Shown one piece after another: positions 11,902 through 53,604 of a stretch of DNA of 56,660 bases. The position numbers were made by a program, and so were the translations under genes. Each line of letters begins with the position of its first letter. The stretch's first letter is position 1. Source of the stretch: a virus. The notes beneath the pieces are model-generated. The model was not told the DNA's origin. It saw only the letters and a list, made by a program, of their open reading frames with translations, and did not search any database. The DNA lies in IMG/VR virus record IMGVR_UViG_3300020396_000007, positions 1-56,660 of that record; one strand, given 5' to 3'.

Positions 11902-12300
11902 CTAGTCGTCCCTTGTAGAAGATTGCATCAAACCTTTTTGTAGCAGGAGAGCGGTGTACATTTCTCGCCAATCTTTTAGCCGCATGATCACGTAGCTATC
12001 TTTAAGCTCTTCTCTATTGCGTCGAGTAATTACCACTGGCTTTTCTGGGGAGCCTGTTGTTTTAATGTTTCGCTCTGCTTGCGCCATTGCGTCACGAAAA
12101 CTTAATCTCTCTACCCGCTTGGCCTCGATGAAAATCTCAGGCGTACCAAGTATGTCGGCCCCGCCTGACTGCGTACCAATAAAACCGCCACCAGATAAAG
12201 GTGCCCTTTGGCACCTGTTCTCGTTAAAGATGTGATCGTTAAACCAAGCGGCCAAGTCGCGTTCGTACTTGTCACCTTTGGATTTCTGAGGGTTGCCCAC
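11902..12300 (-). CDS. Hjc-like Holliday junction resolvase / PD-(D/E)XK endonuclease
   Basis: 132 residues if started at GTG 12300 (VGNPQKSKG), which has GGGAG 6 bases upstream and directly follows the previous stop; an upstream ATG is possible. Motifs: KGDKYERDLAAWF (Glu of helix 1), GTQSGGADILG (Asp), and IFIEAKRVERLSF (E-A-K). This is the archaeal-type resolvase/RecB nuclease core. It should process four-way or branched DNA before packaging. The 3' end overlaps late-element copy h. Confidence 0.78.
   Translation of the reverse strand: MGNPQKSKGDKYERDLAAWFNDHIFNENRCQRAPLSGGGFIGTQSGGADILGTPEIFIEAKRVERLSFRDAMAQAERNIKTTGSPEKPVVITRRNREELKDSYVIMRLKDWREMYTALLLQKGLMQSSTRDD
11904..11913 (-). promoter_or_regulatory. 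Late element copy h (AGGGACGACTAG)
   Basis: Minus-strand GGGACGACTAG covers the stop of the resolvase gene, 31 bases before the 40-aa gene that opens the lysis operon. It matches the GGACGACT core found at late-operon boundaries. Confidence 0.5.
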
Positions 12301-12301
12301 G

Positions 12302-12739
12302 TTAGTCTCCCTTGAGTATAAAATCTGGTAGCTCAAGCGTTTTTGGCTTTCGATGTCTTAGTTCTTCTTCATCACAGAATACACGAGAAGCGTCAGCCTC
12401 TCTGTCGTGACACGCTTCGCACTTGAATTGTTGTTTGGCTCTGGCCTTCGTACACCCACAGCTAATACAAGGCCGCCGCCATTTAGGTGGAGACGGCTTG
12501 ATTTGGTATTTGGCCCCTGGAAAATACTGAAGGTTTAATCGCATCAGTATTCTTTTAATTGTGTCTACGCAGACTGAGTACCTGTCTGCTAAATATTTGT
12601 GTGAATGTTGCTCGTGATTTCCTTTTAGCCAATCAATCTCCAAAGCAGTGAGCTTTGTTTTCCTTGACATCGCTGCGCTAATTGCCTGTTCTGTTCTAAT
12701 TTTCCGCATGAACATGTAACGTCTATACCACATACACAA
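12302..12739 (-). CDS. HTH protein with zinc ribbon, up to 145 aa
   Basis: Two parts are visible. An HTH segment (LTALEIDWLKGNHEQHSHKYLADRYSVCVDTIKRILMRL, quoted by its ends, about residues 31-69) resembles sigma-70 region 4/homeodomain-like binding. It is followed by a zinc ribbon CISCGCTKARAKQQFKCEAC (CxxC...CxxC). The start is uncertain: TTTACA-16-TATAGA overlaps the first codons on this strand, so translation may begin at MRKIRTEQ or MSRKTKLTAL instead of 12739. Its stop touches the resolvase GTG. Likely a transcription factor for the late/lysis region. Confidence 0.65.
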   Translation of the reverse strand: MCMWYRRYMFMRKIRTEQAISAAMSRKTKLTALEIDWLKGNHEQHSHKYLADRYSVCVDTIKRILMRLNLQYFPGAKYQIKPSPPKWRRPCISCGCTKARAKQQFKCEACHDREADASRVFCDEEELRHRKPKTLELPDFILKGD

Positions 12740-12768
12740 CTTTTGTAAACTTTTGGTCTGTAAATGTA

Positions 12769-12796
12769 TTGACTTTTTAGCGAAAAGCGGTAAACT
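12769..12796 (+). promoter_or_regulatory. Candidate plus-strand promoter ahead of the structured element
   Basis: TTGACT, 16-base spacer, TAAACT, with predicted start near 12803. It would transcribe the inverted-repeat element and the lipoprotein frame at 12952, both antisense to the neighbouring operon. Confidence 0.4.
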
Positions 12797-12881
12797 CTGA
12801 AGCGTTTACAGCGGCCGAAGGCGAACGCGACACCGCCACAGCGGTGTTGCGTGAGAGCGGAGAACGGAGAAGAGTTTACCG
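12788..12881. other. Large inverted-repeat element (possible structured RNA or origin)
   Basis: Perfect 11-bp arms CGGTAAACTCT (12788-12798) and AGAGTTTACCG (12871-12881) enclose a second 11-bp stem (CGCGACACCGC/GCGGTGTTGCG, one G-T pair, about 12828-12852) and a small GCC-GAA-GGC hairpin. This is a three-way-junction-like layout in a non-coding gap of about 190 bases. It lies just beyond the 3' end of the primase-helicase gene. There is no T-run, so it is not a simple terminator. Candidates are a replication origin or a small RNA. Confidence 0.5.
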
Positions 12882-12931
12882 AAATCTACGTGAACGAAAA
12901 ATTCAAAAAAAATTTGTACGCACGTACCGTT

Positions 12932-14857: not shown

Positions 14858-15047
14858 CTTTGATCTCCGTGAAGTATTGATCGAGCCTGACATGAGGCCA
14901 AGTCTCTTTGATTTTTGACAAGTAAATGGAGCTTACAAAGTTTCTCTTCACCCATCCGTACGGAGTGGTGCGGCAGATACCTAGTGACCTGGCTACGTTC
15001 GGTACGCCACCCAAGTCATCAAGAAGTTTCTGTATATTAAAGTGCAT
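14760..15047 (-). CDS. Cro-like HTH repressor, 95 aa
   Basis: An HTH near the N-terminus: IQKLLDDLGGVPNVARSLGI, then CRTTPYGWVKRNFVSSIYLSKI, the pattern of Cro/YdaS-like phage repressors. MHFNIQK at 15047 is chosen because AGAGGAA lies 9 bases upstream; the frame runs upstream to 15131. The 3' end overlaps the primase gene by 98 bases. It faces the recombination operon across a divergent promoter region that contains operator copy B, so it is a prime candidate for binding that operator. Confidence 0.72.
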   Translation of the reverse strand: MHFNIQKLLDDLGGVPNVARSLGICRTTPYGWVKRNFVSSIYLSKIKETWPHVRLDQYFTEIKDEHTRRGTRIFGQGLGDNTNKEGRKSTSSKVG

Positions 15048-15062
15048 TTGTAATTTTTCCTC

Positions 15063-15091: not shown

Positions 15092-15095
15092 CTAC
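15077..15095 (+). promoter_or_regulatory. Operator copy B (GATGTATCATATACACTAC)
   Basis: The best copy of the dyad TGTAT-CAT-ATACA. It lies between the divergent Cro-like gene and the recombination operon, overlapping both candidate -10 boxes. This is the layout of a lysis-lysogeny switch. Confidence 0.68.
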
Positions 15096-16378: not shown

Positions 16379-16656
16379 TGGCTGACGAACCGTTGGTTAT
16401 CAATCAGTTCAAGTGGTGCATCAAGTCCAACGTAGATGGTGGGTCTTGGTTATCACAGCACGGTGAGTGGTGTGAGAAAGAAAGCGCGGGTTTCTGGACC
16501 GACGATGATCACAAAATGGCGGCACCATTCTACGCGAACGATGCCGATACTGCACGAACCGCACGATGGGTGCCGATATACGATTACATGCGGCACATGT
16601 CCGAGTTTGACGATTTAGGTAACTATAAAAACTTTAAAAGAAAGATCAAAAAATGA
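16378..16656 (+). CDS. Hypothetical protein, 92 aa
   Basis: ATG at 16378 in a TGATG overlap with the ATPase stop (a GTG one codon earlier is possible). The protein is Trp/Asp-rich (FKWCIKSNVDGGSWLSQHGEW and FWTDDDHKMAAPFYA) with a basic C-terminus NYKNFKRKIKK. It is coupled by ATGA to the SSB-like gene. No family recognised; probably an accessory of the recombination complex. Confidence 0.62.
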   Translation: MADEPLVINQFKWCIKSNVDGGSWLSQHGEWCEKESAGFWTDDDHKMAAPFYANDADTARTARWVPIYDYMRHMSEFDDLGNYKNFKRKIKK

Positions 16657-18187: not shown

Positions 18188-18485
18188 GCTACGAGATCTG
18201 CCGCTAGAAGAAGGTAAGCGGTTGATTAATACTGATCGAAACAAAGAGTACGGTGAGCCGTACGAAAACTTCTCTGACATTGCTGCAATGATTTCAGCTA
18301 TACTTCGAGGCATCTTAAAAGATGGTGAGCGCGTACGTGTTGAGCATGTCGCAATGATAATGATTATCGTCAAGCTTTCGCGTATGACTACATCACCCGA
18401 CAAGTTTGATAGTTGGGCAGATATAGCTGGCTACGTTGGTACGGGATGGGAAGCGATTGCGGTGGATCGCAAACTAGATACCTAG
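18180..18485 (+). CDS. DUF6378-like phage protein, 101 aa
   Basis: Start MSKLRDLPLEEG overlaps the previous gene by 8 bases. The body (INTDRNKEYGEPYENFSDIA; VEHVAMIMIIVKLSRMTTSP; DSWADIAGYVGTGWEA) matches a small helical family common in phage replication regions. The His/Glu/Asp-lined helices resemble MazG-like NTP pyrophosphohydrolases, but I cannot claim activity. Its TAG stop and the stop of the giant minus-strand gene share the palindrome CTAG, leaving no room for a terminator. Confidence 0.68.
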   Translation: MSKLRDLPLEEGKRLINTDRNKEYGEPYENFSDIAAMISAILRGILKDGERVRVEHVAMIMIIVKLSRMTTSPDKFDSWADIAGYVGTGWEAIAVDRKLDT

Positions 18486-21400
18486 AAGCTACCACCAAAA
18501 CCGCCACCGAAACTACCGCCACCTGATTGGCCGCTCTTACCACGAGTGCCAGCGACAGCATCAACGATGCCTTCTTTGGCCCATGATACGCCACCCAACA
18601 CTGGTACACGCCCGACAATTTCACGCATCGCTGCGCGTCTTTCTCCGTTAGCTGGCTTATCGTCCCACCAAGAACGACCACCTTGCAACACAACTGTTGC
18701 ATCATTGAAGAGACCCACCGTTGGGCCACCAATAGTTTCAAGTGTCCTTTGCGTTCCGTACGCACCGTTATCAGATTGAGACGCTATGTCGTACGCCAAT
18801 TCTCCAATGAGACCCAATCCCCCAAGAGCAACCATACCATCGAAGTACCAACCCATAAGCATATCGAGGTCTTCGTTTTCTTCAAAGGCTGTTGTGAGTG
18901 TATCGGACAACCTACGTTCACGAAGTCCAAACTCTCTGTTGTCCTCACCGCCACGTCCTTGAATGATGTCCTTAGTTCCAACAGCTATTCCACCCATTGC
19001 TGGCCCTGCTACTAGGAGTGCAGCGAGTGGACCAAGGCGGTTGTCAGATTGACCTGCAAAAGCCTTGACGAAGTTGGCCCCACGTTGTGCTGGCGTATCG
19101 CCACGGAAAGCCTCACCAGCCACTGTATTGACCAGTCGGGTCATCATAAGCGGATAAGACTTTAACTGCATTGCTATAGCCCCTAGAGGCGTCTGCCCCC
19201 ACAGAGGTAAGTCGTTAGGGTTAGGCGTGAAGATCATTTGGTTTGTCAGCTTAATCATAGAAGCAGCAAGCTTATTGGCTAGTGGGTGTTCAGCACCAGT
19301 AAAGCGGCTTTCCATAACAAGATCCATGTCTAGGTTCTTATCTTTAACGAACTCAGCGAGACCCTCTTCTTGCAAGATGCGCCGAGCAATCCGACCCGCA
19401 CGAGAGTTAGGACGGTTCCTTAAAACTTTTTGCTGAGACTTGAGGTGTTCGTACGAAACCGAGGCGGCAACGTCTCGCATCATGTCAGTCCAAGGAGTGA
19501 GCAAAGTAGAGTTAAAGAAGCCAGTCATAAACTGTGTACTGTCTACACCATGAGCTACCGTAAGCCTTTGGTGTACTGCATTTTCTGTAGCTGCTCCAAT
19601 ATTTCGGATCATGTCACGATACTCAGGCTCTACTGAAAACTTACGCAATGCCTTGGCGTATGATCCTAAATCACCTGTACGTATCAATGGCAGGATCAAG
19701 TCTCCCAGGCTCGTAAGAGTTGTGAACCCCAGGAGAGTAACAGCGTTTACGCCACGCAACCATTTGGAAGCGTTCTTACCTGAGAACAATCCATGTACGC
19801 CATCAATCGGACGACGCATTGCTGCGTTCATAAAGCCCTGTGCGTGCTTGAGGTTATTATTCGAAGTAAGTTTAGTAAGACCTTCCGTATCACCCAAGGC
19901 ATTAGCTATGGCATTAGCACGTTTGCGGAAGTTGTTACGCAACATTATTGCGTCTGGATTGTCTGATAACTGATCGCCTAGAAGATCCATAATATTGGCT
20001 TCGATCTCCGCAGCAGTCTTGCCGCCTTGCGCCATGTCGATAAGCTCTTTAGCCTTTTGCTCTGACTGGAACTTGTCTTTAATGGGTGCGTAGAAATAGT
20101 TATTGTCAAACGTGTTCTCTTTAACGCCATGATCTGATGCGCCAGAGCGTGCCCATGTCGTAGAGATTATCTTATCACTAGACAGTAACGCCCCTATAAC
20201 TTTACGTGCGTTCATCGGCTGTGCAAGAATAGACATATAGTCGTGATACCCATGCATACCTGCGCCGTACTCAGTCGTAAGGTCAATGCGATGCTCAAGG
20301 TTATCTGAATACTTTGTCATCGAAACGAGCAGATCATTCTCTAAGAACACTGCTAGACTGTCAGGTGTATCAAAGTCAGCAAAGTCAGTGTACTCGTCCA
20401 GCCTGATTACACGATTATAGTCAAGGTGGTCTGCGCTATCGCCAGCTTTATCTGTCATGCGCTTAAAATTCTGCGCGGGGTTTGATAGTACGCCATCTTC
20501 ATCAATGATACGCTGCATCATTCTACGTGCTGATTTGTCTGCTAGTTCTTTAGACCCACCACCGTTTCGCTCTGCCATAAAGTATTTTGACATACGACGC
20601 ATAAACTCTTCGGGATCATTCTCGATCATGTCCTTACGCCAGATCATAGGGAAGTAGTTTTTATCTATGTTACCAACCAGTGCGCCAGCTTCATTAAGAC
20701 GGCCATTAGCTTGATCTAAATAATCACGAGTATGAGTGTAGGCAACCAACTCTTCTTGTGTAAGAGACGAGACTTTGTTCTTGTTTCTAAGTGCGGAGAT
20801 AATGCGTACGTGACTGTTGGGTTGTGACATCCTACGTTTTGGTGAGATACCAACAGCGCCGATTGCGCTTTCTATCATCATTTGCGGGCCAGTCTGGAAG
20901 TACCGCTTTATGACGCCACCACTGTCAGGAAGACCACGAAGCATCTTGGTGAGAGGAATTAAGAACTTACCCATCTGTGCGTTCGTACGCTCGAAGTGAC
21001 CGCCGCTGCCGTCTTCAGGTTCGAAGAAGCCCGCAAGCTTTCGCATACCAGACCTAGCCATAATTTTAGCGTTCGTACGTATGGGGTTAAACAAGCCACA
21101 CTTGCGTATCTCGGCTGCTGCATCTGACGGCATACCCCGCCCGCGTGCTACAGAGATCATAGCTTCTAGTGTACGTGGGGGTACGCCACCATCTTCGAGT
21201 TGCTGGGCTGCTTGCTTGAAGATACGTAATTCATTCGCACCTTCCATAGCATCGAGCATTGCCCGCCCATTCGCTGAGTTTGTACGTGCGTTTTCTCCCA
21301 GGATAGGAGTTGCGTTCTCAAACACATCGCTTCTTACGCTGCGGATACTGCGTGAGGACAGCATCATCTTGTCGCCACCCAAGGTTATACTTGTAAAGCC

Positions 21401-24400
21401 AGCCTGTTGAAGAGTTCTTTTGAGCTTGCGTTCGCCACCTAAAATCTCACTCAGGGTTCTTACCATCTCTTCTGCTGAATACACCCCGCGTATATCGTCT
21501 ATTGCTTGTGCTTGATTTACGGATGTCTCGGAAGACTTGAGGTGACTTATCAGCGTCTTAACTATAGCGTGCTTACCAGTCATTTTGTTTTCAAACATGG
21601 CTGGCTGTGTATCCCTGATAAATACAGGTGTACTTGTCGTATCTATGTTTGCGCCAATGTCCTCAAGTTCCTTTGATAAGACGTCATCGAGTGTGTACAA
21701 CCGATCAATGTGTGCGAAACTGGTAGACCCGTCTATTTTACCCATGTTTATTTTTGCGCGTACGGCTTGGAGCATATCAACTAAGTCAGTGACTGCTTCA
21801 CGTTTCTCTGCGGGCACAGAAGATATAATTTGAGTACGTGTGTTGGCTACAGTATTGCGAGGGGATACAGATACATAGTTTCCAATCCCAAACGGCCCGT
21901 CAGATACACCGCCTGAGAAATGCGGCACTACCTTGTCACCCGTAAACTCACGTATTGCGTCGTATCCTGGGCGCGTAAACGACGTCGTAACTTCATTAGC
22001 AAAATCTACGGCGTACTCCGCAGGTACTGCTTCGGAGTATCTAGCTTTGGGGCTGCCCTTGAGGACTTGGCTTTCACCAATCATATCACCGAATACAGTT
22101 AAAGGACTAAAGCGCTCGCGGGCTGCTGGATTAGCAATGGTTCCATTAAGAACGTAGGCAAGACCCTCAGTGATTTCGTTTTCCAGATCATCAATAAAGT
22201 CTGCAAACAAGTCAGCGTCTTCGCCATCCATAATCTCAGACATTATTTTAAGCTTCGGCTTGGTGGAGTTTACGTCAACAGCCTCTACCATAACGTCGGA
22301 AAATAATTTCCCTGGGTTCCCACCCAAAATAGACGCTGCTTTGGAAAATACGTTGCGCGTTGAGTGGGGCACTACCGTTGTGGAGTACAGAGCTTCAGAT
22401 ACGAACGATACGGCTTGCGTAATATCTTCGGTACGTGAGAGATTTGTACTTGCTGCGCGTACAATCTTACGAAAGTTCCCGTACGCAGCTACTTCAGGGG
22501 TAGCTGGCAAAGACGTAGCCGACAAGCGTGCCAGTCTTGCCACGATAGTTCTAGCCGTATTTTCTATAGCTGGTGTTCTATGAGTAAAGCCACGCAAGTA
22601 ATCACGGAAAGCACTGTTTGCATTTTGTGGAATACCGTTTTCAAACTGAGTACCGTGATCTTGATACTGTTCTATAGTGAGAGCTTGGCCCACAGCATCG
22701 GATTGCTTACTGGCTTTCTTGTTTGCACGTTGGTTTTTACGCATACGTATCAAGGCTTGAAGTACATTCATTGCCTGTTCTGGCGTAGCGCCAAGACCTT
22801 TAATGACTTCCTTATCAGCGCTCAAGGCCATACCCAAAACAATATCAGGTTGCTTGATGTCTATTGCTCGACCCTTATTGCCGCCACCCTTTGCCTTCTG
22901 CTTGGATTGCAGAGTATTTAGAATTGCTTGCTCATCTTCAGTTAGGTTTATGTCATTAATCTTTGTATTTGTTAGGTGGTACACGCGTTTAGCAAGCTTG
23001 TTACCAAAGTCAGACGGTGCGCCATCTGCTCCTATCTGTCGGCGGTATTCTGCGAGTGCCTCAATAAGACCGTACTTGTTTGTGTCATCACCCTTGGTGC
23101 CCTTAACAACAGTGGTTCCGTTTCGAGCCTTATTGGCCTTGGCTTGTGACGCCATAATCTTATTGAAAGAAGATTTCAGATTGCCACGCTGTACATTCGT
23201 TGCGCGTTTAACAGCTTTGAAGATTTTTTGTTTCTCCATAAGCTCGGCAGTTATTCCACGTTGCTCACGCAAAGATAGTATGCTGTCAGATAGCATTGCT
23301 TCTGGAATGTCACCAAATTCTACGTTGGTGTAGGCTTCATTTATCTCTTCAAGCTTACCTGTAGAATATTTATTGAGGTTCTTTTCCCAAAGCTCTGCAA
23401 TTTCTTTCGCCATCTCAGGACGGAAGACACTGCCACCCATTTCAAAGTCATCGCCTAGTGCGCTGACTGCGTAAGAAGTTCTTACAGTAATTTCGTTGAT
23501 CTGTCTTGATAGCGTACGCATCTTCTGATGACCACCTACGGCTCTGAATACGCCAGAGTAATTAGCAATACGCTGCGCTTCGGAGCTATCAATACGGCCT
23601 TGACGAGAAGCGGCAAAGCTTCTCTCTTTCTGTGTCATTGCCATACCTTGAAAAGCGTTGGCTATTTCACTAGCACCCAAAGCCATCTTCTCAGGATCGT
23701 GCATCTCTGGGTAGCCATCATAACCTTCTAGGAAAAGCTGCCGCCCCATACGAACTTGATCGTACCGTACGCGTAGTGACTTACCCAATGAGGTGTTCGC
23801 ATCCACTGGATTTGTGAACTGTACCCGACGCGCCTCATCCTTGTTAGCTATCATCTTGTTAAAGATAGTCTCCATCTCTGGGTCAACGATATGACGGTTT
23901 GTCATATGACGCCAAAGCTTCTTAACTATATCGGCCGCTCTCTTAAAGAAACTGCCATCTGCGGTCTTAGCCGCAAGTGGCGCTTCGTAGGTGTGATGTG
24001 CCCACAGGGCGAACTGGTTTGCGAATAGCTCACCAGCGTTATGATGTGCGTTTGAAGCGCCCGCAGCTTTATCGCCTTCCCGTACGATAGGTGAGTACGC
24101 ATCAAGTAATGTACCGTCCACCCGATCAGAGACAAAGCCACCATCGAATTTCCCTTTTTCGTCGTAGTATTTACTGACTGATTGCCAGAACTCTAGCTTC
24201 AAATCATACGGCAAAAGGTTTTCATAGGCCCAATGTCCAAGCTCATGCATCACAGTAAAGGACGTATTGATACCAGTCTTTGTACCTAGCTTATCAAGGT
24301 TCTTTTCTTGTAAGAAGATTGCGTTGGCGTCATTACCTTTGACAAGCTTGCCATCAATAATATCCATTGTGTTGTCATCAACGGGCCTGACATTCGCATA

Positions 24401-27400
24401 GTTTGCCGAAAGCCTATTGCTGTAAAGCCCTGCGGTATCTTTGCCAACTAACATAGAAACCGATAGTTCATTGATAGGCTTGAAGATTGGGGCTGATTTA
24501 TCAGGGACGATTGCCCTCATCATACGCTCGATATGAGAGAATGTGCTGTCGTTAAGGTTGCCTGATATTTTGCGTAGCTGTGCCAGGGACGTCTCGATGT
24601 CTACCGTTGGCTTGCGTATGCCATCGGGCGCTTCCTTAGAGAGTACGTGAAGAAACGCAGTAATAGCGTCTAGCCTACGCCCAAACGGGATTTCCATCTC
24701 AGTATCGCTAATGTCCATTACGACACGGAACTGCTGTTCCTCAAGCTGCTGAAGTGTTGTGTAAATGTCAGTAAGAGTTGGCTTTGAGTTAATGAACTCA
24801 TCCATATTTCCTATGAAATTTCCACCGTCAACGAACTTGTGTCCGAGGTACAGTCGATTAACTATCTGTTTGCCTTCGGGTGTAGACGAAAGACGCTTCA
24901 AGTCTATCTCTGTTCCAAACGCATCATCAAGCTCTAGTGGCCCACTTGGACCTTTCGCCTGTGGCTCTGGTGTAACTTCAGCTTGCTTTCCAATACTGTT
25001 GTTTTGGTCAAGTGGCTCGAAGATTACTTTGAGTATATCCCGATCAGTAGCGCTACTTACTTTTTTACCGTTATGCTCAAGTGGCACGTACCCGATATTA
25101 AAGTTTTCTACTTTACCCTTTGGGCCTAGTAGTTTTTGCAAACCGTCGCCGCGCTCAAGTTGCCCTGGCTTTTCTAAGTTGCCAGTATGTGTGAGTACGC
25201 GAGGTTTTTGCTCAAGTGTCTTGGGAAGAAGGATTAGTTTCTTACCGTCTTTTGTTGCTGGTACGTCAGGAAGTTCTTGTACGTCAGTTACGTCATTGCC
25301 GTTACCGTCTACTACCTTAGTCTTTGCAGGTGGATCAACAGACAGGCCACCCTTACGGGCAAGAGCCTTGGCGGTTTCTACATCAAAGTCAAACTCGTCA
25401 AAGTCACCAGTCTTTTCTAGCTTCTTCTCTGCCTGATCTATAAGTTTTTCGAAGTCTTCCTTTACGCTTATGCCTTGCTTGTTGTCATCAATAATTTTGA
25501 GAGAACCAGCCTTTTTTAGTCCACTCGCTTTGAGAGCCATGTCCTCACTGGCATAAACCTTAAACATGCCTCTGTTTGGGCTGTCATTCCTTGGCACCCA
25601 TACGCCATGTACGACTTGGCCTTCAGCAGCGGGGCCACCCCGACCCTTGCCGCCGCCCTTAATCCCAACGACAGGTTCACCAGCACGAGCCGAATAACTG
25701 TAAACGGCTTTCATAATACCCTTTTGTGCATCTGCTGATGCTTCAGCTTCTGCCAAAGACCGCTTCTCGTTTACTCTACGAAAGATGCCTTCGCCTTCGT
25801 TGACAGTGCGATTGTCGCTAGTTGGCACACCGCGCTTAAACCATTTGGATAGTTTGGAGTTTACTTTCTTTTCGCCTGTCTTGGGGTCAATGTATTCTCT
25901 AAACACCCTGCCAGCTAAAGCATCTTTCTCCATTGCCTCGCCTGATTTCGCTGTTCGATCTGCAACCCTGTTAGCAGTAAACTTTAAATCTTCCGTGTTC
26001 GAACGAGTTGCAGCTTCCGCTTTTAATCGGCTGACTTCTTCGGCAGACTTTGCTGCGTCTATTGTGGGTAGAGTGTTTTCCTCAAAGTCTTTGATACGTC
26101 TACGTAGGGCGGCTACTATCTCTTCGTCCATTGGCGTTGCGTCAGCAGCACCCGCTCTTATCAAGCCGTTTAAAACAGACCGCATTTTTTTAGGGGATAA
26201 GCCAGCCTCACGTAAAATGTCGTTAAACATATTGTCGGCAAAGTCACTGATCTCTGATTTTTCTGTGGGTACGTCAGCTTCGATTATTTTTTCGGCTTCG
26301 GTCTTACTAGGGTTTGTAAAGTCAGCTTCGTCTTTGCGTATAGGCGTGCTGTCGTTTCTCGCTATAAGACTTTTTACGTACGCTCCCCTACCACTTTTAA
26401 TAGCAGAGATACGGCCCTCTCTATTAGCTATGAATATCTTAACGGCTTGATTTCCCGCAGCAGTGATCTTGCCATCTTTCATGCCGCCATCTGTTTGACC
26501 AAGTATCTTGGATATATCTTCGTCAGTAATTGGCTTATTGTCAGTACCGTTTTTTGCGTTTGCCTTACTGACTTTGTTTACATGGCTGTCAAAAGCTTTT
26601 TTGGTTTGTTCTGTCCAGCCACCAGCTTTTGTCTTTTTAAACTTAACAGGCTTGGCATCAGGTATTGCGATGATCTCTGGAATTTTTGGCGCTTCGTCAG
26701 CCTGTACTTCCGCTTCAGCTTCATCACCTGTTGTGGTCGCGCTCTCATCTGGATCTTCAGCCTTCGTAGTGTCACCAGCGTCAGCCTCACTTTGTTGTGT
26801 GGCGTTCGTAGCTGTGCCCGTATCGGCTTTAGCTTTAGCTTTTTCTTCAGCAGCCCTAGTAGCCTCTGCTCTCTTTGCTATAATATCTTCGTTGCCTAAA
26901 CGCTCGACGGCCTCGATGTCAGCTTTGTTTATAAGATCGTTAAATTCTCGAAACTTAGTATCGTAACTAGCCTGTATTGCGCCGACGTTACCGCCTTCTT
27001 TTTTTGCTATCTCAAGCTGCTTCGCGGTGTTCTCAAGTTCTGTCTCAAGACCTACAGCCTTGTTGACTGCGGCTTGTACGTCAGCACGTTCTTTCTCAAT
27101 ATCAAGAAGATCATTTTCTGCGTCTATGCGTACGTCATCAGGCAACGTATCATCTTTAGACTGTGCTTGAGCTATACGCTCTAAGTCGGAAAGTTCGCCT
27201 ATACGGCTATCGAGCTTGTCACCCAAAGCCGTACCTTGTTTCCATTCGAGCGCTCTAGCAGCAGGGGCACGCGAAGCTAATGCACCTAATGGCGCACCAA
27301 TAGCACCAGAAAATACGCCTTCTATGGCGGCTGCCGTACCTATTCGAGAGGCATCGTACTGATCACGTAGACCTTGCTGCATTTGACGGGATTGCTGTAG

Positions 27401-27934
27401 AGCCTCAAAACCTGCGCCCATACCTGCGCCGACTGAGCCTTCAAGAAGTGCCCCACGTTTGGCCCCTTCTACAGTCGCTCTTTTTACTGCGGCTGATTTA
27501 GTTAAGCCCGCAGCCCGACCAGCCTTTGCAACCCTACCTGCTTTGGAAGCAGCGCCCGCGTACGGGATTAGGTTGATGGGATCGAATACTGTCGCAAGGG
27601 TATAGTCTTTAGCTTGCTCTAAAAAAGTACCACGTTCGGGAGCGTTCTGCCATGCTTTAGACAGGCGAGCCATAAGAGCCTGGTCATCACCAGCGTTCTT
27701 ATACTCAAGCATATCTTTACCAGCAGAAAGAAAGTTACTGTCTTTCCAGCGCTGATCTGTGTACCAGTTATCCAGCATGTCAGAAGTCGTAGCAAAGCTT
27801 TCGCCCTTGCTATCGTAATACTTTCGTACATCGCCAATAAAGCTTTGATTGTTTACAAGGGATGAGCCAGTAAGGTTTGAGTAATCATTACTGTTGTCAT
27901 TACCACTGCCGTAGATTTCGTCAAAAATTCCCAT
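18482..27934 (-). CDS. Giant virion-associated protein, 3150 aa (gp16-like ejection protein candidate)
   Basis: Start MGIFDEIYG at 27934 has GGAG about 7 bases upstream. The N-terminus has hydrophobic glycine/alanine helices (FDPINLIPYAGAASKAGRVA) seen in large podovirus internal proteins. Then come an acidic linker (about 385-425), long coiled regions, and a zinc-peptidase motif HELGHW (about residue 1230). Near the C-terminus are membrane-like stretches (VTLLGFTTLTSLGDLILPLI; LAALLVAGPAMGGIAVG) and a glycine tail GGSFGGGFGGSF. It follows two other large internal-type proteins, as T7 gp14-15-16. It probably enters the cell with DNA. It has no recognised polymerase or transglycosylase motif. 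Confidence 0.78.
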   Translation of the reverse strand: MGIFDEIYGSGNDNSNDYSNLTGSSLVNNQSFIGDVRKYYDSKGESFATTSDMLDNWYTDQRWKDSNFLSAGKDMLEYKNAGDDQALMARLSKAWQNAPERGTFLEQAKDYTLATVFDPINLIPYAGAASKAGRVAKAGRAAGLTKSAAVKRATVEGAKRGALLEGSVGAGMGAGFEALQQSRQMQQGLRDQYDASRIGTAAAIEGVFSGAIGAPLGALASRAPAARALEWKQGTALGDKLDSRIGELSDLERIAQAQSKDDTLPDDVRIDAENDLLDIEKERADVQAAVNKAVGLETELENTAKQLEIAKKEGGNVGAIQASYDTKFREFNDLINKADIEAVERLGNEDIIAKRAEATRAAEEKAKAKADTGTATNATQQSEADAGDTTKAEDPDESATTTGDEAEAEVQADEAPKIPEIIAIPDAKPVKFKKTKAGGWTEQTKKAFDSHVNKVSKANAKNGTDNKPITDEDISKILGQTDGGMKDGKITAAGNQAVKIFIANREGRISAIKSGRGAYVKSLIARNDSTPIRKDEADFTNPSKTEAEKIIEADVPTEKSEISDFADNMFNDILREAGLSPKKMRSVLNGLIRAGAADATPMDEEIVAALRRRIKDFEENTLPTIDAAKSAEEVSRLKAEAATRSNTEDLKFTANRVADRTAKSGEAMEKDALAGRVFREYIDPKTGEKKVNSKLSKWFKRGVPTSDNRTVNEGEGIFRRVNEKRSLAEAEASADAQKGIMKAVYSYSARAGEPVVGIKGGGKGRGGPAAEGQVVHGVWVPRNDSPNRGMFKVYASEDMALKASGLKKAGSLKIIDDNKQGISVKEDFEKLIDQAEKKLEKTGDFDEFDFDVETAKALARKGGLSVDPPAKTKVVDGNGNDVTDVQELPDVPATKDGKKLILLPKTLEQKPRVLTHTGNLEKPGQLERGDGLQKLLGPKGKVENFNIGYVPLEHNGKKVSSATDRDILKVIFEPLDQNNSIGKQAEVTPEPQAKGPSGPLELDDAFGTEIDLKRLSSTPEGKQIVNRLYLGHKFVDGGNFIGNMDEFINSKPTLTDIYTTLQQLEEQQFRVVMDISDTEMEIPFGRRLDAITAFLHVLSKEAPDGIRKPTVDIETSLAQLRKISGNLNDSTFSHIERMMRAIVPDKSAPIFKPINELSVSMLVGKDTAGLYSNRLSANYANVRPVDDNTMDIIDGKLVKGNDANAIFLQEKNLDKLGTKTGINTSFTVMHELGHWAYENLLPYDLKLEFWQSVSKYYDEKGKFDGGFVSDRVDGTLLDAYSPIVREGDKAAGASNAHHNAGELFANQFALWAHHTYEAPLAAKTADGSFFKRAADIVKKLWRHMTNRHIVDPEMETIFNKMIANKDEARRVQFTNPVDANTSLGKSLRVRYDQVRMGRQLFLEGYDGYPEMHDPEKMALGASEIANAFQGMAMTQKERSFAASRQGRIDSSEAQRIANYSGVFRAVGGHQKMRTLSRQINEITVRTSYAVSALGDDFEMGGSVFRPEMAKEIAELWEKNLNKYSTGKLEEINEAYTNVEFGDIPEAMLSDSILSLREQRGITAELMEKQKIFKAVKRATNVQRGNLKSSFNKIMASQAKANKARNGTTVVKGTKGDDTNKYGLIEALAEYRRQIGADGAPSDFGNKLAKRVYHLTNTKINDINLTEDEQAILNTLQSKQKAKGGGNKGRAIDIKQPDIVLGMALSADKEVIKGLGATPEQAMNVLQALIRMRKNQRANKKASKQSDAVGQALTIEQYQDHGTQFENGIPQNANSAFRDYLRGFTHRTPAIENTARTIVARLARLSATSLPATPEVAAYGNFRKIVRAASTNLSRTEDITQAVSFVSEALYSTTVVPHSTRNVFSKAASILGGNPGKLFSDVMVEAVDVNSTKPKLKIMSEIMDGEDADLFADFIDDLENEITEGLAYVLNGTIANPAARERFSPLTVFGDMIGESQVLKGSPKARYSEAVPAEYAVDFANEVTTSFTRPGYDAIREFTGDKVVPHFSGGVSDGPFGIGNYVSVSPRNTVANTRTQIISSVPAEKREAVTDLVDMLQAVRAKINMGKIDGSTSFAHIDRLYTLDDVLSKELEDIGANIDTTSTPVFIRDTQPAMFENKMTGKHAIVKTLISHLKSSETSVNQAQAIDDIRGVYSAEEMVRTLSEILGGERKLKRTLQQAGFTSITLGGDKMMLSSRSIRSVRSDVFENATPILGENARTNSANGRAMLDAMEGANELRIFKQAAQQLEDGGVPPRTLEAMISVARGRGMPSDAAAEIRKCGLFNPIRTNAKIMARSGMRKLAGFFEPEDGSGGHFERTNAQMGKFLIPLTKMLRGLPDSGGVIKRYFQTGPQMMIESAIGAVGISPKRRMSQPNSHVRIISALRNKNKVSSLTQEELVAYTHTRDYLDQANGRLNEAGALVGNIDKNYFPMIWRKDMIENDPEEFMRRMSKYFMAERNGGGSKELADKSARRMMQRIIDEDGVLSNPAQNFKRMTDKAGDSADHLDYNRVIRLDEYTDFADFDTPDSLAVFLENDLLVSMTKYSDNLEHRIDLTTEYGAGMHGYHDYMSILAQPMNARKVIGALLSSDKIISTTWARSGASDHGVKENTFDNNYFYAPIKDKFQSEQKAKELIDMAQGGKTAAEIEANIMDLLGDQLSDNPDAIMLRNNFRKRANAIANALGDTEGLTKLTSNNNLKHAQGFMNAAMRRPIDGVHGLFSGKNASKWLRGVNAVTLLGFTTLTSLGDLILPLIRTGDLGSYAKALRKFSVEPEYRDMIRNIGAATENAVHQRLTVAHGVDSTQFMTGFFNSTLLTPWTDMMRDVAASVSYEHLKSQQKVLRNRPNSRAGRIARRILQEEGLAEFVKDKNLDMDLVMESRFTGAEHPLANKLAASMIKLTNQMIFTPNPNDLPLWGQTPLGAIAMQLKSYPLMMTRLVNTVAGEAFRGDTPAQRGANFVKAFAGQSDNRLGPLAALLVAGPAMGGIAVGTKDIIQGRGGEDNREFGLRERRLSDTLTTAFEENEDLDMLMGWYFDGMVALGGLGLIGELAYDIASQSDNGAYGTQRTLETIGGPTVGLFNDATVVLQGGRSWWDDKPANGERRAAMREIVGRVPVLGGVSWAKEGIVDAVAGTRGKSGQSGGGSFGGGFGGSF

Positions 27935-27985
27935 CGGGTACTCCATTTAACCTGATCTGGTCAGACTAAATAAAAGTACCCCTCT

Positions 27986-27995
27986 CAGTCGTCCT
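27986..27995 (-). promoter_or_regulatory. Late element copy a (TAAAGGACGACTG)
   Basis: Minus strand; touches the stop of the 980-aa gene and lies 52 bases before the ATG of the giant gene. The 48-base gap holds nothing else. Same core as the other late-boundary sites. Confidence 0.6.
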
Positions 27996-34307: not shown

Positions 34308-34565
34308 CTACCTATATCCATACTTTGAAGTTATCTTTTTGACAGCTTCATCCATGTTGTAAAACTCAAGCATCCCGCTTTCTGGGTTAAATGAGCCAGC
34401 GCCACCAATGTCTTGGAGTAGCTTAATAGTGAATGGAGAAGCGCGAACCATCATGCTATCACCCTCACGTCCCATATCACTGGTCTTACTGTCTGATGCG
34501 GCCTGTTCCTTACGGGCAGATATAGACTTGCCTGTGTTTGGGCCAAATACGTCACTGAACGGCAT
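34308..34565 (-). CDS. Hypothetical protein, 85 aa
   Basis: Start MPFSDVFGPN at 34565 has AAGGAG 7 bases upstream. A Ser/Lys-rich, probably disordered N-terminal part (GKSISARKEQAASDSKTSD) is followed by a small alpha/beta unit (SPFTIKLLQDIGGAGSFNPE; EFYNMDEAVKKITSKYGY). The nearest upstream signal is late-element copy b, 49 bases before the ATG. No family recognised. Confidence 0.62.
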   Translation of the reverse strand: MPFSDVFGPNTGKSISARKEQAASDSKTSDMGREGDSMMVRASPFTIKLLQDIGGAGSFNPESGMLEFYNMDEAVKKITSKYGYR

Positions 34566-34613
34566 CTCTTTCTCCTTGTTCAACTTTGAAACTATAAGGT
34601 AATAGACCTACTA

Positions 34614-34623
34614 CAGTCGTCCT
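34614..34623 (-). promoter_or_regulatory. Late element copy b (TAAGGACGACTG)
   Basis: Minus strand, overlapping the stop of the 298-aa gene and 49 bases upstream of the 85-aa gene start. Same TAAGGACGACTG as copy d. Confidence 0.6.
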
Positions 34624-38648: not shown

Positions 38649-39151
38649 TACTTGTACCTAGAGTTGGAGCCGCCATCCACGATAGTCATGCAGTACGGCT
38701 TATTGCCTTGCGTACGTTCGTGTAAAAGGTTGGACATATTTGCTTGGTATAGTTGAAGAGAAACCATAGCCTTATCGCTGCCCTGCTGGATAAAGTAATG
38801 AGCCGTTAGCCCATCAATCATTATCATGTCAGGGATAGCGCGGCTTTCTGTAATGTCGTTATAGTAATCAATATCAGTCCCATCATAATACGGGTGCTGG
38901 CGCACGTCCTCTATTACGCGGTTCGCAAGCTCAATCATTAACATCATAACCTCGCCATCCACACGAGATGGAGAGAAGTTACCCGCCCGTACAAGAGCGG
39001 AACGAATGTGATTTTCCAACGGGGTATATTTTTCTTTACCCGCAGCAAAAGGCTTCGTTGTGCTTTTTTCTGTACGAGCCGTAGTGGTCGCGGTGGTCGC
39101 GGTAGTTGTACTGTATTTATGCGAACTAGCTGGAACCTGATGATAAGACAT
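38648..39151 (-). CDS. Putative head-tail connector / tail tube protein A-like, 167 aa
   Basis: A Thr/Ala-rich N-terminal segment (TTTATTATTTARTEKSTTK) is followed by a helical domain (LENHIRSALVRAGNFSPSRVDGEVMMLMIELANRVIED, quoted by ends) and ESRAIPDMIMIDGLTAHYF. Size and position after the capsid and before the nozzle-like protein fit the gp11/adaptor class. No exact family match is claimed. Confidence 0.6.
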   Translation of the reverse strand: MSYHQVPASSHKYSTTTATTATTTARTEKSTTKPFAAGKEKYTPLENHIRSALVRAGNFSPSRVDGEVMMLMIELANRVIEDVRQHPYYDGTDIDYYNDITESRAIPDMIMIDGLTAHYFIQQGSDKAMVSLQLYQANMSNLLHERTQGNKPYCMTIVDGGSNSRYK

Positions 39152-39498
39152 TAATCATCCTCTGCGCTTATTATACGGCCTGTAAAGTAATGGTGATGCA
39201 TCATTGCTGCTTCTTTAAGGTCGGTGGGAACCTGCCATGTCACGTACTGACGCGTACCGTCCCAAACACCCATCACACGATTATCGGCCAAGCGAAGATC
39301 GAACACTGCGTTCTCTGGTTCTGCCGAAACAAACACAGAAAAAGACGGGGCTGCTTTTGGAGCCTTCTTTTGAACTGCTTTTTTCGCAGCGGTTTCCGAT
39401 ACGGCGACAGTTTCCGATACGTAAGCCTCATTTTCTGGGGTGCTAGGATCGTCAGCTACAAAGTGTCCGTCTTGTGTGCGTGCGCGTTTACGTGCCAT
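39151..39498 (-). CDS. Hypothetical capsid-module protein, 115 aa
   Basis: N-terminus MARKRARTQDGHFVADDPSTPE is basic then acidic. The Ala/Lys middle (AAKKAVQKKAPKAAP) is probably flexible, and the C-terminal half is beta-rich (FSVFVSAEPENAVFDLRLAD; GTRQYVTWQVPTD). AGGAGA precedes the ATG. It follows the terminator and late-element copy c. Possibly a head decoration or completion protein. Confidence 0.6.
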   Translation of the reverse strand: MARKRARTQDGHFVADDPSTPENEAYVSETVAVSETAAKKAVQKKAPKAAPSFSVFVSAEPENAVFDLRLADNRVMGVWDGTRQYVTWQVPTDLKEAAMMHHHYFTGRIISAEDD

Positions 39499-39548
39499 TA
39501 AGTTTCTCCTGAGAAATTGTCTTTCTTTTATGTGCGTTATTTGCGGTA

Positions 39549-39558
39549 CAGTCGTCCT
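39549..39558 (-). promoter_or_regulatory. Late element copy c (TTTAGGACGACTGTACC)
   Basis: Minus strand, directly after the T-run of the capsid terminator and 51 bases upstream of the next gene. Terminator followed at once by this element is the expected order if it is a promoter. Confidence 0.65.
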
Positions 39559-39560: not shown

Positions 39561-39591
39561 ATAAAAAAGGCCGCGCTACGAGCGCGGCCTT
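39561..39591 (-). terminator. Intrinsic terminator after the major capsid gene
   Basis: Perfect 11-bp stem AAGGCCGCGCT/AGCGCGGCCTT (39567-39577, 39581-39591) with a 3-base loop. On the minus strand it is followed by a run of T. It begins 28 bases after the capsid stop. Confidence 0.9.
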
Positions 39592-40786: not shown

Positions 40787-40870
40787 GTGATATTACTCCT
40801 TCCTAAAAGGTTATGTTACGTTATGTGCGAGGTACTCAAGTAAACTGCGGTACAATCACGCAAGTTACTA

Positions 40871-40881
40871 TCGTCCCATAT
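40871..40881 (-). promoter_or_regulatory. Late element copy f (ATATGGGACGATAG)
   Basis: Minus strand, 85 bases upstream of the capsid ATG. It shares the 11 bases ATATGGGACGA with copy e, 73 bases away. Two elements before the capsid gene suggest a tandem promoter. Confidence 0.5.
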
Positions 40882-40943
40882 CAATGTACGAGGGCCGTAG
40901 CGCTCAATCGACATGTACAGTATTGTTTATAAATGAGGTGCGT

Positions 40944-40955
40944 GTCGTCCCATAT
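40944..40955 (-). promoter_or_regulatory. Late element copy e (ATATGGGACGACACG)
   Basis: Minus strand, directly after the T-run of the terminator that ends the scaffold gene. Confidence 0.55.
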
Positions 40956-40957: not shown

Positions 40958-40981
40958 AAAAAAAATCGGCCCGAAGGCCGA
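40958..40981 (-). terminator. Intrinsic terminator after the scaffold-like gene
   Basis: Stem TCGGCC/GGCCGA closed by a stable UUCG loop on the minus strand, followed by eight T. It lies immediately after the stop of the scaffold-like gene. Confidence 0.92.
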
Positions 40982-49120: not shown

Positions 49121-49381
49121 TTATTCTCCTTTAGCCAGCTTTGCTAGTGCGGCCACCCGACTGCTCGACATACTTATTATGTCCTCAGTATTCGTCATGC
49201 GCCCTGAGACATTACCCATGTCACGCTGCAAGCTTTCTCTAGTAAGCAATAATGCACCACGAAGCGCCTCTATGTCGTCCTTCATAGTTTTTAATTCTTC
49301 GTGGATACGGGCATCTATATACTCGCGGTACGTAGCATCTACCTGACTGGCCCATACGCTACTGCTCACGGGGTTTGGCAT
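49121..49381 (-). CDS. Coiled-coil protein, 86 aa
   Basis: Helical and charged (EYIDARIHEELKTMKDDIEA; LLTRESLQRDMGNVSGRMTN), ending KLAKGE. Overlaps the portal 3' end by 23 bases. No signal peptide. A small structural or assembly protein by position. Confidence 0.6.
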   Translation of the reverse strand: MPNPVSSSVWASQVDATYREYIDARIHEELKTMKDDIEALRGALLLTRESLQRDMGNVSGRMTNTEDIISMSSSRVAALAKLAKGE

Positions 49382-51290: not shown

Positions 51291-51320
51291 AAGAACACAT
51301 TTACTCCTTTATCCAACCTT

Positions 51321-51330
51321 CAGTCGTCCT
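51321..51330 (-). promoter_or_regulatory. Late element copy d (AATAAGGACGACTGAAGG)
   Basis: Minus strand, overlapping the terminase stop and 31 bases before the portal ATG, with a normal AAAGGAG ribosome site between. Confidence 0.6.
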
Positions 51331-52994
51331 TATTCGCCCCACCCACGCCAACTGTCAGACATATTGTTGAGATCAGACGTGTGGTTCCACATACTGTCTT
51401 TGGATTTAGGGAGAGAAAACTGAGGGGGTTGGTAATATTCACCCGTGGATGGTGTTCGTGCGAGTACATCTAAACCGATAGCCATAGCATCAACCATGTC
51501 GTCGTGAGTGCCCGCTGGAAACGTCTGACACTCATCATGGAAGGCATCAAGCCATACAGCAGAAGAAGGTATGAAAACTCTCCCGCCCTCAATGATAGGC
51601 AGTACGGCAGATAAGCGTGTCACCTTGTCAGTCGATACTCTGTAAGGAATTACAGAAACGCCACTCTCTCTTTTAAGCTCTTGGATAAGGCTCTGACCTG
51701 ATGCTTTGTCCTCAATGTAAATGCCACGTAGGCCACGTCCGCGCCACTGGTTGTTAAGCTGGATCATACGACGCTTTAGTTCAGGAAACTCAAACCGTTC
51801 ACGTACACAGTCTATGATGTAGATGTCGCCCGTAGTGTCGAGGCCCATCACCATCATAACAGAGTAGTCACTGTCCTGGCGTGCCTTGAACGCTGTGTCG
51901 GCTGCAATAATGAGAGATGAAAATTTCTCTGGCTTCATATCTTCGGGGTACGTACGCCACCAACTAGAACGTATTAGGTTTCCCCCCTGGATGTACGGGG
52001 TCTGCTGGTAGAGGGAAGCGAACTCTCTGGGGTTGAGGCGTTGACGACGTTCAAGATCTTCGAGAGAGAACCGTTCGGGCCACAAGGCGATCTTTTCAGT
52101 TTTACGTATGTACCGTTTTCCCGATGAGAGCTTGCTTGCCTCGTTTGGTGCGAGGTAATCAGCGTGATCGGATGGTAAATTGGATCGGGAAATCTTACCA
52201 ACGTCTCCTTGAATTGGCTTTTCTTCGACGGCAGGGAAATTGATGTGAAGCCATCGGCCTTCCTTCCAGTCATCTGTATCCATAAGTCGGCCAGCGAGGT
52301 CGTCAGGATGCCAGCGTGTGAGGATGCAGATTTGGGCGGGGGGTACACCGTCAATGTCGGGTTGGAGACGCGTGGATAGAGCGGATACATAATAATTCCA
52401 GACGCGGTTTCTCTGTGTGGCACTCTCAGCTTCCTCTCTGCTCTTTAATGGGTCATCAAAAACTAAAAGATTTGCCGCACGCCCTGACGTGGTGCCCCCA
52501 ACACCAATGAAATAGGCCGCGCCCTGCGCGGTTGTGCGCCACTGGTCTACGGCTCGGCTGTCTGGTGACATCTCAAAGTCAGGGAAGGTCTGCGATGTGG
52601 TTGGTTCGTTGCATAAGTCACGTACTTGGCGTCCGAAATCAGTAGCAAGCTGGCTATTGTAGCTGGTGGACATAAGAAAACGTGAGGGTTTGCGCGACAT
52701 GAAGTACGCAGGGAAAATTATGCTGCCATAAGTAGACTTCCCGTGCCTTGGCGGCATGGTGATAAGCAGGTTTCGTACGGGTACGCGCTCTATGCGGGCC
52801 TTTTCCTCTGCTGACTTGCCGTAATGGCTGTCGAGGGTATTCTTTTCTAGGCGATCAAGAGCCTCAATCATGTCTAAGTGGAACTGCGGGAGTACCCAGC
52901 CTGGGTTTTGTAGGCGAACCCAGCCTAGAAAGCTTCGTTCTGCCTCACTGAGCTTGAGTAAGTGTTTGGCTGCGTCCTGTGCTGTGAGGTTCAT
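51330..52994 (-). CDS. terL: Terminase large subunit
   Basis: 554 residues. Walker A-like MPPRHGKSTYG (about 79), Walker B LLVFDDPLK (about 175), then the RNase H-fold nuclease with Asp in IIAADTAFKARQDSDYS (about 363) and GTHDDMVDAMAIGLDVLA (about 497). It drives ATP-dependent packaging and cuts the concatemer. The PPRHGKS Walker variant is typical of a broad terminase clade in podoviruses and Mu-like phages. ATGA overlap with the small subunit gene. Confidence 0.95.
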   Translation of the reverse strand: MNLTAQDAAKHLLKLSEAERSFLGWVRLQNPGWVLPQFHLDMIEALDRLEKNTLDSHYGKSAEEKARIERVPVRNLLITMPPRHGKSTYGSIIFPAYFMSRKPSRFLMSTSYNSQLATDFGRQVRDLCNEPTTSQTFPDFEMSPDSRAVDQWRTTAQGAAYFIGVGGTTSGRAANLLVFDDPLKSREEAESATQRNRVWNYYVSALSTRLQPDIDGVPPAQICILTRWHPDDLAGRLMDTDDWKEGRWLHINFPAVEEKPIQGDVGKISRSNLPSDHADYLAPNEASKLSSGKRYIRKTEKIALWPERFSLEDLERRQRLNPREFASLYQQTPYIQGGNLIRSSWWRTYPEDMKPEKFSSLIIAADTAFKARQDSDYSVMMVMGLDTTGDIYIIDCVRERFEFPELKRRMIQLNNQWRGRGLRGIYIEDKASGQSLIQELKRESGVSVIPYRVSTDKVTRLSAVLPIIEGGRVFIPSSAVWLDAFHDECQTFPAGTHDDMVDAMAIGLDVLARTPSTGEYYQPPQFSLPKSKDSMWNHTSDLNNMSDSWRGWGE

Positions 52995-53317
52995 GCGCTT
53001 TCCTCTACAGCTTCGGCGTCGATAATGTTGTTTACGCCCATTGCTATAGCTTCAAGCTGCTCACGAGACATCTTCTCAGGGGCTTCTTGTATATTATGCT
53101 CATGCTGCACGAACTGAGCCGTCAGATCAGGTACAACCTTGTTGAGCATGGTGGCGAATACCCGCGCTTGTGTGGGTGTCCAGTCCTGTTTGCCCATAAC
53201 TACGTCGTGAGCTTCGTCTAACTGGTTTATGACGCGCCGATACAAGCCAGCACGCATGTTTGCCACTTGTAAAGGGGTCAATCTAGTTTCTGTTGTAGGT
53301 GTTTTTTTACGTGACAT
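52991..53317 (-). CDS. Terminase small subunit-like protein, 108 aa
   Basis: Directly upstream of terL and coupled to it. Helical, with a basic N-terminus (MSRKKTPTTETRLTPLQVAN), a central helix (YRRVINQLDEAHDVVMGKQD) and an acidic C-terminus (NNIIDAEAVEESA). It would recognise the packaging site. Call is by position and size; HTH is not obvious. Confidence 0.65.
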   Translation of the reverse strand: MSRKKTPTTETRLTPLQVANMRAGLYRRVINQLDEAHDVVMGKQDWTPTQARVFATMLNKVVPDLTAQFVQHEHNIQEAPEKMSREQLEAIAMGVNNIIDAEAVEESA

Positions 53318-53595
53318 TAAAGTTTCCTTGACGTTTTCAATTTTGCTCAGATTTCTCGTGGGGGTCGCAATGGCAATTCACGGAAACTGATCGGCGGGAA
53401 GGGGGTTGGCCCCCCCTATCTTCTCTTTTTGGCGCGATGATGACACTTACCACTGCTAACTGACTGTTTTTGCTAGGTTTTCCCTCCCCACTTAGGGGAT
53501 TTTCGGTGGTTTTTGGGTCTTCGTATATTTCGGATTTCGCTCCTCTCGCGTAAGAAAATTAGCCATACGCGTATGTTACGCAAATGCGTAACGCT

Positions 53596-53604
53596 CGTCG
53601 TCCT
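53596..53604 (-). promoter_or_regulatory. Late-element-like copy g (GCAGGACGACGAG)
   Basis: Minus strand AGGACGACG, one core mismatch relative to AGGACGACT, about 280 bases upstream of the small terminase. It could be the first late promoter; weaker than the others because of distance and mismatch. Confidence 0.35.

What the first reader, a model, noticed from the sequence alone, without database searches (positions are those of the whole stretch)
11904..53604. Repeated RGGACGACTR element at eight late-operon boundaries: candidate late promoter
On the minus strand GGACGA(C) with flanking A/T recurs at 11904-11913, 27986-27995, 34614-34623, 39549-39558, 40871-40881, 40944-40955, 51321-51330 and (weaker) 53596-53604. 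Four copies overlap the stop codon of the upstream gene. Two (39549, 40944) directly follow strong intrinsic terminators. Most precede the next start by 30-50 bases. The element resembles neither a -35/-10 pair nor an ordinary ribosome site. ACGACT recalls the core of T7-type promoters, yet no single-subunit RNA polymerase gene is visible. It may be a promoter for an unrecognised or host polymerase with a phage activator, or an RNA processing site.
Basis: partly seen in the sequence, partly recalled or inferred. Interest (0 to 1): 0.8.

Follow-up and report, generated by a model that had tools for sequence, protein, structure and literature searches.

The report
Late promoter class of marine phages
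A repeated ten-letter DNA word in this ocean phage turns out to be half of a two-part on-switch placed in front of its virus-building genes and kept across its whole phage family, and we name a small, previously overlooked DNA-binding protein as the likely factor that reads it.

Summary
The repeated element is real and is most likely a late promoter. The window is a CRP-810-type marine phage. Across about 135 relatives' sequences, RGGACGAC occurs 484 times on the late strand (133 nonredundant sites) against 23 times (17) on the other. Held-out halves of the sites recover the box at the same place. Single-base variants of GGACGAC lose it, so the 7-mer is nearly invariant. Site 40871 fails; it lies in a conserved leader of the capsid gene. 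The promoters keep orthologous positions in 14 genomes. No T7-type polymerase and no sigma region 2 gene was found. The best candidate reader is a 122-residue helix-turn-helix plus zinc-ribbon protein (12302-12670, minus), found in all nine near-complete genomes and unannotated in CRP-810. A LuxR-type protein is the rival, but one genome lacks it and keeps the promoters. The promoter class is well supported; the factor is inferred.

The parts
53573..53604 (-). Late promoter upstream of the packaging genes (gp52991, terL): AGGACGACG, 18 nt, TAACAT; an 8-bp inverted repeat GTTACGCA/TGCGTAAC lies in the spacer
51298..51330 (-). Late promoter of the portal gene: AGGACGACT, 19 nt, TAAATG; -10 box ends a few nt before the ATG (predicted near-leaderless start)
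49249..49281 (-).
   Evidence: conserved position in relatives
40919..40951 (-). Late promoter of the major capsid protein, directly after a terminator: GGGACGACA, 19 nt, AATACT
39527..39558 (-). Late promoter after the capsid gene terminator, upstream of gene 39151-39498: AGGACGACT, 18 nt, CATAAA
34591..34623 (-). Late promoter upstream of gene 34308-34583: AGGACGACT, 19 nt, TATAGT
27963..27995 (-). Late promoter upstream of the 3154-aa gene: AGGACGACT, 19 nt, TAGTCT (weak -10; TAATCT in relatives G013, G011, G012, G014)
11881..11912 (-). Late promoter at the end of the resolvase gene, upstream of the lysis region: GGGACGACT, 18 nt, TATCTT
10398..10428 (-).
40871..40881 (-). Rejected copy: GGGACGAT without a -10 box, inside the conserved capsid-gene leader
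12302..12670 (-). Candidate late regulator: 122-aa helix-turn-helix plus zinc-ribbon protein (C68, C71, C84, C87); present in all nine near-complete genomes
8116..8676 (-). Rival regulator: LuxR/GerE-domain protein next to the integrase; absent from G008
11902..12336 (-). PDDEXK endonuclease (its CRP-810 counterpart lies next to the regulator and is annotated Holliday junction resolvase), downstream neighbour of the candidate regulator
39567..39591 (-). Intrinsic terminator after the capsid gene, directly before the 39527-39558 promoter
40966..40981 (-). Intrinsic terminator stem followed by eight T, directly before the capsid promoter
40787..40918 (-). Conserved noncoding leader of the capsid gene (GCGCTACGGCYC, GCGTGATNNTTCCGC and other blocks)

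Best explanation
The element is the -35 half of a late promoter class, RGGACGACW-N17/18-TATAAT, used throughout the CRP-810-type phage family. Host RNA polymerase reads the -10 box through a sigma70-type factor. A phage protein reads the nearly invariant GGACGAC in place of the usual -35 contact, so packaging, capsid, tail and lysis units switch on late. The most likely reader is the 122-residue helix-turn-helix plus zinc-ribbon protein at 12302-12670 (minus), encoded with the replication genes. Shown by sequence: the two boxes, their spacing, strand and position, family-wide conservation, and presence of the protein in every near-complete genome. Inferred: that they are active promoters, that host polymerase uses them, and that this protein binds GGACGAC. 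My confidence is about 0.9 for the promoter class and about 0.5-0.6 for this protein as the factor; the number below is for the whole statement.
For: Information profile of 133 nonredundant sites shows two blocks and almost nothing between. EM with free position places TATAAT 18 nt (46%) or 19 nt (34%) after GGACGAC. With random seeds and held-out halves, the held-out fraction of sites with the box is 0.36-0.41 at the right offset and mostly 0-0.07 away from it. 44% of late-strand GGACGAC have the box at the right spacing, 3% at wrong spacings, 2% on the opposite strand; single-substitution variants are at background except GGACGAT at 9%. Nine window sites on minus, none on plus, 0.25 expected. 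Sites keep orthologous places before terminase, portal, gp48581, gp42919, scaffold, capsid, post-capsid, gp34308, giant-ORF, lysis and amidase genes in 14 genomes. The -10 box ends 5-9 or 15-34 nt before the ATG at 58 of 83 sites and never 0-4 nt. Regulator: present in 9 of 9 near-complete genomes; recognition helix C-V-D-T-L-K-R nearly invariant over 44 sequences, matching a nearly invariant site; model with a three-helix HTH at mean pLDDT 81.6, best structural matches Hin recombinase and other HTH domains; weak Sigma70_r4_2 similarity in one member (G015). Outgroup phages with TerL about 30% identical lack a match to the protein, and most lack strand-biased copies of the motif.
Against: No transcript 5' ends, no binding data. 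Some window sites have weak -10 boxes (27988, 51323, 10421). The link between protein and site is co-occurrence in one phage family, so other family-wide proteins cannot be excluded. Structural matches for the regulator are weak (Z below 5) and its zinc ribbon has no identified relative. The regulator's window start codon lacks an obvious ribosome site. One high-GC outgroup contig (L070, 67% GC) has 8 against 1 copies of the 8-mer without a match to the protein; its -10 boxes were not examined.
Confidence: 0.55

Rival explanations
1. Same promoter class, but the reader of GGACGAC is the LuxR/GerE-domain protein next to the integrase (8116-8676), binding as an activator over the -35 region.
For: GerE domain at E 1.5e-11; found in eight of nine near-complete genomes; GerE and sigma region 4 helix-turn-helix domains resemble each other (Sigma70_r4_2 hits the same gene).
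Against: G008 lacks it and has other reading frames upstream of its integrase instead, yet carries late promoters at the usual places. The CRP-810 study reports LuxR in CRP-810 and 107 of 251 related genomes (PMC11288001), though many of those may be partial. GGACGAC has no dyad symmetry as expected for a LuxR-type dimer box.
Confidence: 0.15
2. Same promoter class, but recognised by a host alternative sigma factor without any phage factor.
For: The layout is that of a sigma-dependent promoter. No sigma region 2 gene was found in the phages.
Against: The family infects diverse hosts (Roseobacter, and prophages in SAR11, Poseidonocella and Sphingomonadaceae; PMC11288001) while the 7-mer stays invariant. 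The base after the 7-mer shifts with phage clade. In the one bacterial assembly at hand, a Marinimicrobia MAG, the 8-mer is not enriched (5 and 3 against 22 and 32 for the reversed pattern). Alphaproteobacterial hosts were not scanned.
Confidence: 0.13
3. Same promoter class, recognised by another phage protein of unknown function, for example one without a detectable DNA-binding domain or a divergent sigma factor.
For: Several core proteins have no assigned function.
Against: The HTH-zinc protein is the only family-wide protein, apart from the integrase and the enzymes of DNA metabolism, in which a sequence-specific DNA-binding domain could be recognised.
Confidence: 0.12
4. The element acts in RNA: processing site, antitermination site or translation signal.
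For: It often abuts stop codons and follows terminators.
Against: The TATAAT box at 18/19 nt has no role in such models. -10 boxes stop just short of start codons, as promoters do.
Confidence: 0.04
5. T7-type promoter for an unseen single-subunit RNA polymerase.
Against: No PF00940 match in nine genomes while T7 itself matches at 1e-109. The site has a separate -10 box and no conserved run continuing to a start site.
Confidence: 0.01

Closest known systems
T4 middle promoters (MotA box, AsiA, sigma appropriation)
   Same: Phage element takes the place of the -35 while the sigma70 -10 box is kept; small phage DNA-binding protein reads it (PMC2988021).
   Different: MotA box is centred at -30, 12 bp from the -10, and tolerates changes; GGACGAC is 18/19 bp from the -10 and nearly invariant. 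No AsiA or MotA homologue was noticed; the candidate is an HTH plus zinc ribbon.
Late promoters of phiEco32-like phage 7-11 (phage sigma factor gp47)
   Same: Bipartite late promoters spread in front of late genes, host core polymerase, phage specificity factor (PMC8948821).
   Different: Consensus GTAAtg-(16)-aCTA differs in both boxes; the factor is a sigma homologue, whereas no sigma region 2 was found here.
GafA / GafYZ activators of alphaproteobacterial gene transfer agents
   Same: Phage-derived activator with DNA-binding domains; GafY is proposed to help sigma70 polymerase at degenerate -35 elements of about 18 promoters (PMC9638019, PMC11150451).
   Different: In the passages read, no short invariant -35 word is described for GafY or GafA; homology between them and the candidate was not tested.
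Lambda Q (late antiterminator)
   Same: Small DNA-binding late regulator with a zinc site, encoded after replication genes near a resolvase in lambdoid phages (recalled, not tested).
   Different: Q acts by antitermination from one late promoter; here there are about nine promoters, some directly after terminators.

Membership tests
sigma70-type bipartite promoter | -10 box TATAAT-like | tested here: met
sigma70-type bipartite promoter | 16-18 bp between hexamers | tested here: met
   17/18 bp if ACGACW is taken as the -35 hexamer; 18/19 counted from the end of GGACGAC
sigma70-type bipartite promoter | -35 TTGACA-like with usual tolerance | tested here: not met
   GGACGAC nearly invariant, single variants at background
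T4-type middle promoter (MotA/AsiA) | MotA box sequence and 12 +/- 1 bp from the -10 | tested here: not met
   sequence and spacing differ (PMC2988021)
T4-type middle promoter (MotA/AsiA) | AsiA and MotA genes | not tested
   no hit was seen among the ORFs scanned, but no dedicated search was made
Phage sigma-factor late promoters (phiEco32 type) | phage sigma70-family gene | tested here: not met
   no Sigma70_r2 in nine genomes with positive controls; Sigma70_r4_2 hits mainly the LuxR-type gene and once, weakly, the HTH-zinc gene; a very divergent sigma cannot be excluded
T7-type promoters | single-subunit RNA polymerase gene | tested here: not met
LuxR-type activation | LuxR/GerE gene in every genome that carries the promoters | tested here: not met
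   absent in G008, a 57-kb contig that may not be complete
CRP-810-type phage family | shared core genes and synteny with CRP-810 | tested here: met

The most novel reading that the evidence does not exclude
A small helix-turn-helix plus zinc-ribbon protein is the founding member of a new family of phage late transcription factors that takes over -35 recognition from host sigma with an invariant 7-bp site across a whole marine phage family infecting diverse hosts, without a phage sigma factor or polymerase.
Probability: 0.45. Interest if true: 0.72.

Novelty: new variant of a known kind. Interest (0 to 1): 0.6.

Why it matters
It gives a late gene control system for an abundant, globally distributed marine phage family, for which the only paper found (PMC11288001) mentions no promoter. 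It lets transcription units of hundreds of uncultured genomes be read from sequence alone, names a testable regulator that the CRP-810 record does not annotate, and can be tested at once with the cultured phage CRP-810 and its host. It also adds a case of -35 takeover with a much stricter site than T4 MotA.

Tried and rejected
Site 40871 as a promoter copy (no -10, inside a capsid-gene leader). T7-type polymerase. Phage sigma factor with region 2. LuxR as sole reader. Literature search for GGACGAC with promoter and phage gave only incidental hits among the 20 listed of 580. Solved-structure sequence search with the single regulator gave nothing; with the profile, one partial match to a 'CAP REPEAT' entry at 1e-5 over 30 residues and otherwise weak hits. 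Fold search gave only generic HTH matches; the zinc ribbon was not searched alone. A genome-contig scan with the regulator found a single relative, in a Marinimicrobia MAG contig that also has GGACGACT followed by CATTAT. RNA structure of the capsid leader: only four consensus pairs, no Rfam match. The clade shift at the base after GGACGAC (C in 17 of 31 CRP-like sites, 5 of 84 elsewhere, Fisher 4e-8) is confounded by phylogeny, so it is used only as weak support.
Full report
Observation. AGGACGACTG occurs four times in the window, all on minus. The window is a 56,660-base virus record related to Roseobacter phage CRP-810: capsid DNA match, TerL 58% identical, shared core genes. Terminase and capsid searches in IMG/VR gave more than a hundred relatives.

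Conservation. In the terL-portal gap, GGACGAC is kept in every close family member printed and in CRP-810, although the sequence after it diverges; the more distant L044, L045 and L048 do not show it at that exact place. In ten large contigs the 8-mer shows strong strand bias while the reversed control pattern shows none (a second set). In 14 genomes it is 124 on the late strand against 15 on the other (summed).

Second box. The profile of 133 nonredundant sites shows A/T at -4 to -1, RGGACGACW, a stretch with little information, then an A/T block at +27 to +32. EM with free position returned TATAAT, starting 18 nt (46%) or 19 nt (34%) after GGACGAC. A rerun from random seeds on two halves gave GATAAA and TATAAT at the same offset, with 36-41% of held-out sites matching there and mostly 0-7% away from it. 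If ACGACW is aligned with TTGACA the spacer is 17/18, the ordinary sigma70 distance, so GGACGAC sits on the -35 position.

Strictness. Of unique late-strand GGACGAC, 44% have the box at the right spacing, 3% at wrong spacings, 2% on the opposite strand. All single-substitution variants are at background except GGACGAT at 9%. This is stricter than a usual -35 and points to a dedicated reader.

Window sites. Scoring both boxes gives nine minus-strand sites above 17 bits, none on plus, 0.25 per strand expected: 53597, 51323, 49274, 40944, 39551, 34616, 27988, 11905, 10421. Two are new (49274, 10421). The scoring matrix was trained on the family including the window, so the scores are not independent of it; the held-out test addresses this.

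Regulon. Annotating 14 genomes by window homologues places the promoters before the same genes: packaging genes, portal, gp48581, gp42919, scaffold block, capsid, post-capsid gene, gp34308, the 3154-aa ORF, the lysis region and the amidase. In the window all nine feed late or lysis units; the one plus-strand site above 15 bits lies inside the cobT-like gene. The -10 boxes end 5-9 nt (portal class) or 15-34 nt before the ATG at 58 of 83 sites, never 0-4 nt, as expected if transcription starts a few nt downstream. For the portal gene this predicts a leaderless or nearly leaderless message (inference).

Who reads it. Searches found no T7-type polymerase (T7 control positive) and no sigma region 2 in nine genomes. 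Among family-wide genes, apart from the integrase and DNA-metabolism enzymes, only one has a recognisable sequence-specific DNA-binding domain: the protein at 12302-12670, with an HTH and four cysteines as CxxC...CxxC. It occurs in all nine near-complete genomes, lies between primase-polymerase and the endonuclease/resolvase gene, has no high-scoring GGACGAC site before it in the window, and is not annotated in the CRP-810 record. Over 44 sequences down to 31% identity its recognition helix (C-V-D-T-L-K-R) is nearly invariant, parallel to the invariant site. AlphaFold2 gives a three-helix HTH, a short-stranded cysteine segment and a C-terminal helix at mean pLDDT 81.6; the HTH resembles Hin recombinase and others, Z below 5. 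The LuxR-type protein is the main rival, but G008 lacks it and keeps the promoters, and the CRP-810 study found it in CRP-810 and 107 of 251 related genomes.

Mechanism. Most likely the protein is made with the replication genes, binds GGACGAC at the late promoters and supplies the -35 contact, while host sigma opens the TATAAT box. This would work like T4 MotA/AsiA middle promoters or the sigma-dependent late promoters of phage 7-11, but it fails membership in either by sequence, spacing or missing sigma gene. Promoter identity rests on sequence statistics; activity and factor are untested.

Limits. No RNA data. Conservation within one family cannot separate the regulator from other core genes. 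The shift of the base after GGACGAC with phage clade is suggestive only. Alphaproteobacterial host genomes were not scanned for the motif.

Noticed in passing
window 40787-40918 (-): Leader of the major capsid gene with blocks conserved in 20 relatives (GCGCTACGGCYC, GCGTGATNNTTCCGC, a late CTCG/GTAACC block); no Rfam match; consensus folding gave only four pairs, so its nature is open.
   Followed up: partly
window 53575-53592: Perfect 8-bp inverted repeat GTTACGCA/TGCGTAAC inside the spacer of the promoter before the packaging genes; possible operator. A related palindrome was seen by eye in some relatives.
   Followed up: partly
L001 14026-14316 (CRP-810 record OR671924): The HTH-zinc protein gene of CRP-810 has no annotated feature in the public record.
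   Followed up: yes
CRP-810 (position 16444 on the reverse complement of OR671924), G024, G023, G026 in the CRP-like clade: In the CRP-like clade a late promoter runs straight into a terminator-like hairpin (for example CATAGTaagggggtgcaaacgcacccccttattttttt), so the new transcript would begin with a hairpin.
   Followed up: no
window 51298-51330: Portal -10 box ends about 5-9 nt before the ATG in the window and relatives, predicting a leaderless or nearly leaderless portal message.
   Followed up: partly
window 18482-27946 (-): 3154-residue ORF without any Pfam match.
   Followed up: no
window 667-4432 (+): CobS-like and CobT-like genes on the early strand, as in CRP-810.
   Followed up: no
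L274 (Marinimicrobia MAG contig): A relative of the HTH-zinc protein, with GGACGACT followed by CATTAT at about the promoter spacing, sits in a contig binned to Marinimicrobia; a related phage of another phylum or a binning error.
   Followed up: no
L044, L045, L046, L049: TerL relatives at 50-53% identity whose short contigs show no consistent strand-biased GGACGAC; they may use another late motif.
   Followed up: no
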